From contig JALIGW010000014.1 in assembly GCA_023053685.1 (NCBI GenBank), positions 16,450,590-16,514,589 of the forward strand: DNA of 64,000 nucleotides, given 5' to 3'. Shown here in pieces: positions 5,475-42,765 of the stretch. Origin of the DNA: Diadophis punctatus similis (lineage: Eukaryota > Chordata > Lepidosauria > Squamata > Dipsadidae). A program made the translations under genes and the position numbers. The notes beneath the pieces are model-generated. The model had not been told where the DNA came from. It worked only from the letters and a program-made list of their open reading frames with translations, and did no database searches. Within the stretch, counting starts at the first letter, position 1; every line of letters starts with the position of its first letter.

Positions 5475-5693
5475 TCAATTAATCTCCAGGGGTTCCATTT
5501 AAAACGGACCCACAATGTCCAGAATTAACCTCCTTCCACTTGAATCTGGTCAACAGAATAAACAGAAACTTCATTTCCATCATTGACCAATAAAAACACA
5601 CTCAATAAACCAAACAAAGCAAAGTTAACCCTTAATCTTTGTGGGCAAAACTTACAGCAGTGGTGGGTTCCTACCGGTGCGGTCCACTCTACC
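5475..5693 (+). repeat. 219-bp segment duplicated at 9849-10067
   Basis: This block spans 183 bp of local flank plus the first 36 bp of the hAT MITE beginning at 5658. It reappears, without gaps and with 8 differences (about 96% identity), inside another MITE at 9849-10067. Because the duplicate crosses the MITE junction at the same base, this locus type is the likely donor. Confidence 0.9.
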
Positions 5694-6076
5694 GTACCGG
5701 TAGCGGCCGGCCGATGACGTAATTTGCGCGCGTCACCGGTCTGTCGTCTTCACCGGTCCATCGCACGTCTCCATCTTTTTTTCAGAATTTTTTGGCTTCT
5801 TTTGCTTCCTGCGCATGCGCGGAAGCATAACATTGCGAGGGGACGTGTGCATGCGTGAGATTTTGGTGATTTTTTGCTTCCGCGCATGCGTGGAAGCAAA
5901 AAAAAATCACTGAAATCACACACACACACGCGTCCCCTCATGAGATTTTGCTTCCGTGCATGTGCGGAAGCAAAATCGCGTGAGGGGCACACATGCGTAG
6001 CGTGCGCATGCACACATGAAACGTGGAGATCCACGTGCAGCACACCGGTAGCAACTTCGAGAGCAACCCGCCCCTG
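5658..6076 (+). mobile_element. hAT MITE, Ac-type, short GTGGGTTCC family
   Basis: The 419-bp element runs CAGTGGTGGGTTCC to AACCCGCCCCTG. Its flanks ACTTACAG and GTTTACAG match at 6 of 8 positions, so the TSD is diverged. The interior has three near-palindromic GGAAGC-bounded hairpins around GCGCATGCGC-like cores (5810-5825, 5877-5898, 5951-5972). It is a longer relative of 925-1216. Confidence 0.82.
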
Positions 6077-6084
6077 GTTTACAG

Positions 6085-6891
6085 GTAATGTAGGAAATAG
6101 ACTTTCATCCTGCGAATAAAAATTATTGGAGTGCCCTGGGAATTGAATTAAAAAGGGGGAATCGTCTGGTGGCGAATGTCCCTGTAGAACTAACAATACA
6201 AAGGAGAACAGGATCAGGTATCTGTGGCCCAGATCAAGCTAGATCACTATTAAGCCAAAGGATTAAGACTAAAGAGAAACCGTTGCTTTTTCTCATGATA
6301 TAATTGCAAATAAACACATTTTAACTCCTCTACGAGCTTCATGGCACACCACAGTTCCCAAATTCAGAAGAGGATTGCCATTAGTCCCATTTGATAATCT
6401 CCCCCCAGCTGGGTTGGAAGGGAAATAGAGGGAAACCTCTCGGGAAACTCAAGAGACACAGGTGCCCTAGAAACCACATCCTACGTTGTCTCGTATGCCA
6501 GGGCTGATTATACCCTTTTTAAAACTCGATTTCCAAGGCACTCCAACTTTATTTGCTTTATTTGTTAGATAACCAGGATAAAATGTCTATGTCTTTAAAA
6601 GTGGTAAAGTTCTGCTGTATTATAGGTAATATAATATAAGCTTTGCTCGCAAAGGGTTGCCAAGAGTCTTTGATGTTAGAGGTTAACTTTGCTTTCTTTG
6701 TTTTATTGCATGCATTTTTATTGGTCAATGAGTGAAATGAAGTTTCTATCAGTCAATGGATCTATGTTGGACACTCAGACCTTCAGAAAAAAGAGCTGGG
6801 AGGAAAAAGGGATTCAACAAGCAAAAGCCTCTGTTAAAGAATCCTCAGGGGAGGCCAGAGAGCCCAGAATGTGCTTCTCAGTTGCTGATTA
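6085..6891. other. Unassigned sequence, no gene seen
   Basis: AT-rich DNA with no recognised repeat or gene. Confidence 0.4.
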
Positions 6892-9786: not shown

Positions 9787-9794
9787 CTGTAGAT

Positions 9795-10107
9795 CAGAGG
9801 TCTTCAAACTTGGCAACTTTAAGACTTGTGGACTTCAACTCCCAGAATTCAATTAATCTCCAGGGGTTCCATTTAAAACGGATACACAATGTCCAGAGTT
9901 AACCTCCTTCCACTTGAATCTGATCAACAGAATAAACAGAAACTTCATTTCCATCATTGACCAATAAAAATACACTCAATAAACCAAACAAAGCAAAGTT
10001 AACCCCTAATCTTTGTGGGCAAAACTTACAGTAGTGGTGGGTTTCTACCGGTGCGGTCCACTCTACCACTCCACAAGTCTTAAAGTTGCCAAGTTTGGGG
10101 ACCCCTG
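9795..10107 (+). mobile_element. hAT palindromic MITE, Buster-type, carrying a foreign patch
   Basis: The left arm CAGAGGTCTTCAAAC to 9850 and the right arm ending TTTGGGGACCCCTG at 10107 are flanked by a perfect TSD CTGTAGAT (9787-9794, 10108-10115). The family is palindromic, as in the clean copy at 50813-50941. Here the hairpin centre is replaced by the 219-bp segment copied from 5475-5693. Confidence 0.88.
9849..10067 (+). repeat. 219-bp copy of 5475-5693 inside a MITE
   Basis: Gap-free alignment with 8 mismatches to 5475-5693. It starts at the shared TCAATT and stops in the first 36 bp of the donor's hAT, at CCACTCTACC. MITE sequence resumes with CCACAAGTCTT. It shows no transposon ends or TSD of its own, so it was copied in, not transposed. 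Confidence 0.9.
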
Positions 10108-10253
10108 CTGTAGATGGACTGATAGCATGATTGTAGAATTGACATTGTATAACATTAATAAAAGATTCCAAGCAAAATATCTTGAGTTTTTGTTATTATA
10201 TTAAAAAAATGAATAAATATGAATTTTTGAGCTTAGTAGCAAAGTCTCAACTA

Positions 10254-22685: not shown

Positions 22686-23165
22686 GGGGGATTTATTTTT
22701 TTATTATTTTTATTTATTTGTCAAACATGTATAGGATAGTAGTAATTTGTATAAACATAAGTAAAAAGTAACGATAAAAGAGGACAATAGGACAGAAGGA
22801 CAGGGACGGTAGGCACAGTGGTGCGCTTATGCACGCCCCTTACAGACCTCTTAGAAATGAGGAGAGGTCTACTGTAGACAGTCTAAGGTTAAAGTTTTTG
22901 GGGTTTGGGGAAGAAACCACAAAGTCAGGTAGTGCATTCCAGGCATTGACCACTCTGTTGCTGAAGTCGTATTTTCTGCAGTCGAGTTTGGAGCGGTTTA
23001 CATTGAGTTTGAATCTATTACGTGCTCGTGTATTGTTGCGGTTGAAGCTGAAGTAGTCATTAACAGGAAGGACATTTTGGTATATGATTTTATGAACTAC
23101 ATTTAGATCAGATCAGAGGCAACGTAGTTGTAAATTGTCTAATCCCAGTATTTCAAATCTGGTGG
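22686..23165 (-). mobile_element. CR1/L2-group LINE 3' end
   Basis: The reverse-strand reading includes VVSSPNPKNFNL and ends SFLRGL before a stop, then the 3' UTR 'ggggcgtgcataagcgcacc'. It is nearly identical to 42249-42765 over about 480 bp and related to 16198-16790. 5'-truncated. Confidence 0.82.
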
Positions 23166-24319
23166 AATAAGGTATTTTGTTGTGAGCAGAGGAGTGAAGG
23201 ACTCTTCTTGTGAAATATTTCCCCAAAAGCAGGTCTCCTTTCTCGCAGCAGACCTACCCAAGAGTCGATGGGCGCTTTCCCCTCTTGCTCCCAGCCAGCC
23301 CTTCCACACAGCCCTTCCCAAAGGGCTGGAGCCTTGACTTCTGGATGCCACGAGCTCTGTCCCCTCCCTTGCTTGCGATTCCTAGGAGAAGATGCCTCCC
23401 TCAAAGTTGGCATTTTCACATCTGGGATGTCTTTTGCCCAGAATCCCTCTGCCAAGATGAGCTTCTCTCTTGAGGGAAGAGAGCGCGGGCCCCTCTTTTC
23501 TGAGGGCAGGCCACAGGTTCTGTGCCCATCTCATCCATCATTCCCTGCCCTGTTGCTCTCTTTCAGGGAAATCTGAAAATTTATGGAGCTCTTTGGGATG
23601 GAACCCTAACCTTTCCAATGCAAAATGGAGTTATTAAGGCTATAAATCAGTTAAAAGTATTTGCAATGGTTCAGTCTTCATCTCTTCTAACTTCTAGAAG
23701 AAGTAACTTCTCAGGTAAGTTTTCATATTAGCACAACTGCACTTAAGCAGCATGAGCTATGCCTGGCATGCAGACGATCCCACATTTATCCAGGAAAGGC
23801 TGGAAAAAATCTTTCCCGGAATCCTGCAAAATTGCTGCCATTCAGCATTTGACGAGACTCACCAAGAGAGGTAAATAATCTGCCTCAATACACTAAACTC
23901 ACTTTTTCTGAAAGAAAAACATTTGTCATAGTGGACAAATGCATTCATTAGCACAGAAATATCAAGTATGACCTCAGCATCACTACAGAAGGTTGCGGTG
24001 CTGGGAAAGGAGGAGGCAAGAGAAGCCTTGAGAAGCAGGTTGGACTAAAAGACCCTCAAGGTCCCTTCCAGCCCTCAAATCCCATGAGGACGACCGAAAG
24101 CCAAGGGGATGGACTGGGCTGCAGGGACAATGGAGACATCACTGGAAGTGCTTAAGGACCAGGTTAGGGAAGGACCATCATGAAGGACCATCTCTACGTT
24201 GTCACAAAGAATCAACAACACAAGCAATCCAGGATTGACCAGCACTGAGACAGATAGCCTCTGGAATTGGAAGACCTTCCTTTGCTGAAGGTATTTCATA
24301 GATGACTATCTCTAGGGGA
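23166..24319. other. Mostly unassigned, with a short CR1 tail
   Basis: No gene recognised. At about 24038-24085 a 'ggttggactaaaagaccctc' stretch is the terminal piece of a CR1 3' end, plus orientation. The rest has no recognised repeat. Confidence 0.5.
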
Positions 24320-42248: not shown

Positions 42249-42765
42249 TGTGGACATTTTATTTATTATTATTTATTTATTTGTCAAACATGTATAGGAT
42301 AGTAGTAGTTTGTATAAACATAAGTAAAAAGTAACGATAAAAGAGGACAATAGGACAGTAGGACAGGGGCGGTAGGCACAGTGGTGCGCTTATGCACGCC
42401 CCTTACAGACCTCTTAGAAACGAGGAGAGGTCGACTGTAGACAGTCTAAGGTTAAAGTTTTTGGGGTTTGGGGAAGAAACCACAGAGTCAGGTAGTGCAT
42501 TCCAGGCATTGATCACTCTGTTGCTGAAGTCGTATTTTCTGCAGTCGAGTTTGGAGCGGTTTACATTGAGTTTGAATCTATTACGTGCTCGTGTGTTGTT
42601 GCGATTGAAGCTGAAGTAGTCATTAACAGGAAGGACATTTTGGTATATGATTTTATGAACTACATTTAGATCAGATCGGAGGCGACGTAGTTGTAAATTG
42701 TCTAATCCCAGTATTTCAAGTCTGGTGGAATGAGGTATTTTGTTGTGAGCAGAGGAGTGAAGGAG
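42249..42765 (-). mobile_element. CR1/L2-group LINE 3' end
   Basis: A close copy of 22686-23165 (same truncation zone, few substitutions), with an ORF2 tail reading SFLRGL on the minus strand. Its left border is TTTATTTATTTG, the element's A-rich 3' end. Confidence 0.83.

What the first reader, a model, noticed from the sequence alone, without database searches (positions are those of the whole stretch)
9849..10067. 219-bp patch copied from 4.4 kb away into the centre of a MITE
Bases 9849-10067 match 5475-5693 without gaps and with only 8 differences. The donor block spans ordinary flank plus the first 36 bp of a different hAT, so the copy was made after that hAT had inserted. The host MITE (9795-10107) keeps both arms and a perfect CTGTAGAT duplication, but its palindromic centre has been exchanged for the patch. 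The patch has no ends of its own. The likely route is repair of a break at the MITE hairpin (or an aborted excision) by strand invasion and template switching, with short overlap at TCAATT.
Basis: partly seen in the sequence, partly recalled or inferred. Interest (0 to 1): 0.78.

Follow-up and report, generated by a model that had tools for sequence, protein, structure and literature searches.

The report
Local DNA patch inside broken transposon
A small hairpin-forming transposon in this animal genome lost its middle and was mended with a 219-base copy of DNA from 4.4 kb away; this is a clear example of an already described kind of repair accident.

Summary
Window 9849-10067 matches 5475-5693 over 219 of 219 bases without gaps, with 8 differences. 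Among scored candidates the genome has no other full-length copy, and the left junction plus unique stretch has two candidates, donor and patch. The host is a near-perfect palindromic MITE with exact ends and a perfect 8-bp duplication; intact relatives are mostly 106, 135 or about 142 bp.

Direction is clear: the block is continuous with its surroundings at 5475, including a hAT inside an older repeat, but is framed by MITE arms at 9849. Of four polarisable differences, two arose at the donor and two in the patch, which argues against an assembly slip.

This matches the single-copy 'Pack-TIRs' of animals (Tan et al. 2021, PMC8277862): a new member of a known kind. A weaker lead: of 12 incomplete copies among 22 in the 264-kb block, 7 have a break within 5 nt of their own palindrome axis, but the host does so only if it was a 106-bp form.

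The parts
9787..9794 (.). left target-site duplication CTGTAGAT
   Evidence: the same 8 bp lies on both sides of L055, L057, L061 and L066, though the query that picked those copies fixed the last six bases
9795..9850 (+). left arm of host hAT-like MITE (56 bp; the last 2, TC, are shared with the donor)
   Evidence: 56-base exact prefix of an intact copy (L060); the 60-mer 9789-9848 occurs exactly at 33 other places among 40 scored of 973 candidates
9849..10067 (+). the patch: 219-bp copy of 5475-5693
9849..9935 (+). part of patch copied from low-copy DNA (donor 5475-5561)
   Evidence: 9835-9934 gives two candidates in the genome, donor and patch
9936..10031 (+). part of patch copied from an old dispersed repeat (donor 5562-5657)
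   Evidence: many copies at about 76-91% identity
10032..10067 (+). part of patch copied from the first 36 bp of the donor-side hAT
10068..10069 (.). AC at the right junction: 2-nt filler, or one substituted MITE base
   Evidence: suffix match to the MITE stops at 38 (mismatch at 39, match at 40)
10070..10107 (+). right arm of host MITE (38 bp)
   Evidence: 38 of 38 identical to intact copies
10108..10115 (.). right target-site duplication CTGTAGAT
5475..5693 (+). donor block
5658..6076 (+). hAT-like element at the donor; 8-bp flanks ACTTACAG / GTTTACAG agree at 6 of 8
   Evidence: sequence; 22 hits to its first 83 bp in the sequence held

Best explanation
A double-strand break arose inside a palindromic hAT-like MITE already sitting at 9795. 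Central sequence was lost: about 12 bp if the host was a 106-bp form, about 41 bp if a 135-bp form. The left end was extended by copying 219 bp from a template 4.4 kb away in the same orientation, and the new strand was joined to the trimmed right arm by end joining. The likeliest trigger is breakage at the hairpin tip: the left junction lies 0.5-2.5 nt past the axis of the 106-bp form. If the host was a 135-bp form the junction lies 12-14 nt short of the axis. Shown: anatomy, single donor, direction, loss of the centre. Inferred: copying in place, the trigger, strand invasion or fork switch, end joining.
For: Ungapped 219-bp copy with one donor. A donor placed at random in 1.78 Gb would lie within 4,374 bp with probability 4.9e-6, so copying was local. 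Host keeps exact ends and an 8/8 duplication. An intact relative folds into a near-perfect hairpin: -65.5 kcal/mol, z = -17.1. In the 264-kb block 12 of 22 MITE copies are incomplete; 7 of these 12 have one break within 5 nt of the axis of their best-matching form. A 2-bp left overlap and a nearby donor match animal Pack-TIRs: median overlap 2 bp, 160 of 281 within 15 kb, the majority of those under 5 kb (PMC8277862 section 8).
Against: A 2-bp overlap is expected by chance in 16% of junctions. The right break is 38 bp from the outer end, not at the axis. The original host length is unknown; against its best-scoring relative (142 bp) the left break is 15.5 nt from the axis. Of the 12 incomplete block copies, 3 (host included) stop at base 56 from an end, near the axis of the 106-bp form only, and 2 (33936, 67241) are broken near an outer end; L013:939, outside the block, stops at base 46. 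Host arms carry no private change in 94 bp (P = 0.15 if as old as the patch, computed on 102 sites), so there is no sign of a long wait between insertion and breakage.
Confidence: 0.85

Rival explanations
1. Same copying, but the break came from transposase: the MITE began to excise, the gap was refilled from a sister or homologue from both sides, and one strand switched to the 5475 template (abortive gap repair). This differs from the main reading only in the trigger, so the two odds overlap.
For: The family looks recently active: 33 other exact 60-mers among 40 scored and perfect 8-bp duplications at 15 of 16 fetched copies with a right end of their own. No private change in 94 bp of host arms, so the patch may have followed insertion closely. 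Abortive gap repair is considered for Pack-TIRs in PMC8277862.
Against: Refilling from both ends need not stop near a palindrome axis, yet 7 of 12 incomplete block copies have a break there. Tan et al. found internal breakpoints more compatible with breaks inside the element.
Confidence: 0.35
2. The MITE picked up the 219 bp elsewhere or at a neighbouring site, then hopped to 9795 (replication-fork switching followed by transposition).
For: The element keeps both ends and a perfect duplication, so it could have inserted whole.
Against: Single copy. The donor is 4.4 kb away, which needs a very short hop. Tan et al. report that multicopy Pack-TIRs lay far from their parental copies.
Confidence: 0.07
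3. Assembly error joining two places.
For: No reads could be examined.
Against: The two copies differ at 8 sites and have different flanks; changes fall on both sides by family comparison; no N in the window; the patch is framed by a MITE with a perfect duplication.
Confidence: 0.02
4. The 219 bp is a repeat family with its own ends that inserted into the MITE.
For: 96 bp of it is an old dispersed repeat and 36 bp the start of a hAT.
Against: Only two full-length places; the stretch with the left junction has only two candidates; no duplication of its own at the junctions; it cuts a hAT at base 36.
Confidence: 0.01

Closest known systems
Single-copy Pack-TIRs of animals (Tan et al. 2021, Nat Commun 12:4280, PMC8277862)
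   Same: Foreign DNA between two arms of one TIR element, one unique donor over 90% identical and of equal length, donor under 5 kb away, short overlap on one side, internal breakpoints, hAT host (208 of their 370).
   Different: The donor runs into another hAT, so their survey filter (no TE within 100 bp of the parental copy) would probably have discarded it. The host is a fully palindromic MITE; 'mite', 'hairpin' and 'palindrom' have no occurrence in the paper's main text.
Templated sequence insertion polymorphisms of the human genome (PMC5110952; title and start of abstract seen)
   Same: Sequence templated from elsewhere and inserted.
   Different: Their abstract speaks of a distant template and seemingly random sites; here the template is near and the site is inside a MITE.
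Palindrome breakage and repair (review PMC7999016, passages)
   Same: A long palindrome forms a hairpin or cruciform; breakage gives hairpin-capped ends that are opened and repaired.
   Different: Breakage itself is inferred here, not seen.

Membership tests
Pack-TIR (Tan et al. 2021) | 100-5000 bp of internal sequence between two arms of the same TIR element | tested here: met
   219 bp between arms of 56 and 38 bp
Pack-TIR (Tan et al. 2021) | both arms cover at least 10 bp of the element's termini | tested here: met
   both exact ends present, CAGAGG and CCCCTG
Pack-TIR (Tan et al. 2021) | unique parental copy, identity at least 90%, length ratio 80-120% | tested here: met
   96.3%, 219 to 219, one other place
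Pack-TIR (Tan et al. 2021) | survey filter rather than definition: no TE within 100 bp of the parental copy, used to exclude segmental duplication | tested here: not met
   the donor enters a hAT at 5658. The purpose of the filter is met another way: no MITE arms at the donor
Pack-TIR (Tan et al. 2021) | intact element at the same site in outgroups (their evidence for gap filling, not a definition) | not testable with these tools
   no relatives of this genome are held
hAT MITE | 8-bp target-site duplication | tested here: met
   host 8/8; 15 of 16 fetched copies with a right end of their own 8/8, one 4/8
hAT MITE | short element made of terminal inverted repeats | tested here: met
   106-146 bp; three forms self-complementary at 96 of 106, 124 of 135 and 136 of 142 bases
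hAT MITE | mobilised by a hAT transposase with matching ends | not tested
   no autonomous partner was sought; the name hAT rests on 8-bp duplications and CAG...CTG ends (recalled features)

The most novel reading that the evidence does not exclude
In this genome the centres of palindromic hAT MITEs are recurrent break sites. Copies repeatedly lose one arm from the axis outward and are joined to, or patched with, other DNA. A recently active MITE family would thus double as a scattered set of natural hairpin-break reporters, of which this patch is the one with a traceable donor.
Probability: 0.25. Interest if true: 0.5.

Novelty: new member of a known kind. Interest (0 to 1): 0.3.

Why it matters
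It is a clean, roughly datable example of how a DNA transposon can take up neighbouring sequence, most likely without jumping, here in a very short, fully palindromic element. If breaks at the palindrome axis prove general, an abundant family of near-identical copies would give a natural experiment on how vertebrate germ cells break and mend hairpins: which templates are used, how far away they lie, and how the ends are closed.

Tried and rejected
Rejected: repeat family, chance match, segmental duplication carrying the MITE (no arms at the donor), donor and patch reversed (the hAT and the old repeat are continuous only at 5475). The overlap TCAATT was rejected.

Self-comparison of the 264-kb block listed 29 local pairs by my cut-offs; four others with hit depth 1 were looked at only at their edges.

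Corrected on re-checking: a first count by hand gave 8 of 9 foreign exits within 4 nt of any of three axes. It covered selected copies, and the tolerance was set after looking. It left out L013:1989 and b198466 (both diverge past base 56), b153860 (alignment failed), and 33936, 67241, 77344 and 77965 (not given to that script). L001, L002 and L004 were left out of family comparisons because they lie in the window.

Full report
What is there. Window 9849-10067 and 5475-5693 agree over 219 bases without a gap, with 8 differences, 7 of them transitions. Outside these limits similarity stops at once. The genome holding the window has 1.78 Gb in 419 contigs. The 219 bp has two full-length places there; the other 38 matches listed are either about 54-83 bp of an old dispersed repeat or 35-48 bp at a hAT start (40 of 878 first-look candidates scored). 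The stretch 9835-9934, left junction included, has two candidates in all, the patch and the donor. The right junction could not be searched alone.

Donor side. 5475-5561 is low-copy. About 5562-5657 is part of an old repeat whose copies are about 76-91% identical to it; in L006 and L012 it is followed by sequence that at the donor lies beyond the hAT. The hAT at 5658-6076 therefore sits inside the old repeat; its 8-bp flanks agree at 6 of 8. The block is continuous with its surroundings here, so this is the donor.

Host side. The patch is framed by the arms of one MITE, 9795-9850 and 10070-10107, with CTGTAGAT on both sides. Twenty relatives were fetched out of the 40 scored matches to the 60-mer 9789-9848. 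Sixteen have a right end of their own: four are 106 bp, one 121, six 135 and five 140-146; 15 of the 16 have perfect 8-bp duplications. CTGTAGAT recurs on both sides at L055, L057, L061 and L066, but the query fixed GTAGAT, so how strong the target preference is was not measured. The intact 135-bp copy at L039:5566-5700 folds to -65.5 kcal/mol (shuffles -14.9, z = -17.1). The forms are near-perfect palindromes, with axes at 53.5 (106 bp), 68 (135) and 71.5 (142).

What was lost. Host arms of 56 and 38 bp leave 12 bp missing if the host was a 106-bp form, 41 bp if 135 and 48 bp if 142.

Junctions. Intact MITEs mostly read AGAATTCTCC or AGAATTCTGG; the donor reads CGAGTCAATT. They share TC only, not TCAATT. 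Overlap of 2 bp or more is expected in 16% of random junctions. On the right, the MITE match ends after 38 bases; AC stands between it and the donor copy, either a 2-nt filler or one substitution in a blunt join.

Time order. By family comparison the patch keeps the common letter at donor sites 5597 (T in 17 of 25) and 5632 (C in 11 of 14), and the donor keeps it at patch sites 10032 (C in 20 of 20) and 10044 (C in 20 of 22). The other four differences could not be polarised. Changes on both sides fit an old copying event and not an assembly fault. Per-branch divergence is about 1.9%; at recalled neutral rates of 1-3e-9 per year this is very roughly 6-19 My. The host arms show no private change in 94 bp; 1.9 would be expected on 102 sites for the age of the patch, P(0) = 0.15, so a long wait between insertion and patch is not indicated and not excluded.

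Do other copies break at the centre? A mechanical recount used six full-length forms and took the best match per place. In the 264-kb block (5 kb of it N) there are 22 MITE copies by my grouping, 10 complete and 12 incomplete. Of the 12, seven have one break within 5 nt of the axis of their best-matching form (3793, 22387, 74072, 77344, 77965, 127507, 240108, in block numbering). Three (the host, 153809, 198474) stop at base 56 from an end, which is near the axis of the 106-bp form only. Two (33936, 67241) are broken near an outer end. Among the 20 fetched relatives four run into foreign DNA: L052 at base 54, L051 at 55, L062 at 64 and L065 at 70. L065 lies 2 nt from its own form's axis; L051 and L052 lie within 2 nt of the 106-bp axis only; L062 is 4 nt from the 135-bp axis and 7.5 from its best form's. 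L013:939 stops at 46, away from any axis. Limits: the 20 were chosen for a match through base 54, the form of a broken copy is uncertain, and no null model was run on this recount. Two block copies (74072, 240108) run into what looks like the end of a common LINE (name recalled). Whether any of these fillers are local copies is unknown.

Reading. The simplest account is a break inside the MITE, loss of some central sequence, extension by copying 219 bp from a template 4.4 kb away, and end joining. A donor that close has probability 4.9e-6 under random placement. Hairpin-tip breakage is mildly favoured by the axis pattern; the family's apparent recent activity keeps aborted excision open.

Comparison. 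Tan et al. 2021 (PMC8277862; outline, sections 7, 8, 12 and 14 and a word search) found 370 Pack-TIRs in 100 animal genomes, 208 of them hAT. Of 281 unique ones 160 lay within 15 kb of the parental copy, the majority of these under 5 kb; overlap had a median of 2 bp; breakpoints lean to the interior; they infer gap filling without transposition for most single-copy cases. The present case meets the definition, but its donor touches a TE, which their filter excludes. Palindrome breakage is reviewed in PMC7999016 (passages only). The passages seen of PMC3517528 on Mar, a hAT MITE family of Drosophila, speak of origin by internal deletion and not of captured filler.

Verdict. Real, well explained, and of a known kind; the possible centre-break hotspot is the part worth following.

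Noticed in passing
window -25928 (C46:16424661) and 140108 (C46:16590697), outside the window in the fetched 264-kb block: Two further MITEs are interrupted near their palindrome centre by what looks like the end of a common LINE-like repeat; the second also lost about 38 bp of its other arm.
   Followed up: partly
L051-L070, MITE centre: The MITE family has discrete length forms (106, 135, about 142 bp) that differ mainly at the palindrome centre, as if central deletions had founded new subfamilies.
   Followed up: partly
L055, L057, L061, L066: Four MITE copies on different contigs share the host's 8-bp target duplication CTGTAGAT; the query fixed six of the eight bases, so the preference was not measured.
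   Followed up: partly
window 22696-23201 and 42258-42764: 507-bp pair at 97% identity, 19.6 kb apart, with hit depth 1 in the 264-kb block; possibly two copies of a repeat.
   Followed up: partly
150522-150789 and 161224-161491 in window numbering (beyond the window, C46 block): 268-bp pair at 99.6% identity, 10.7 kb apart, sharp edges, hit depth 1 in the block; could be another local templated copy.
   Followed up: partly
window 6676-6747: Inverted copy of the same old repeat that the patch contains, about 1 kb from the donor.
   Followed up: no
C46:16445590-16450589: Exactly 5,000 N directly left of the window.
   Followed up: no
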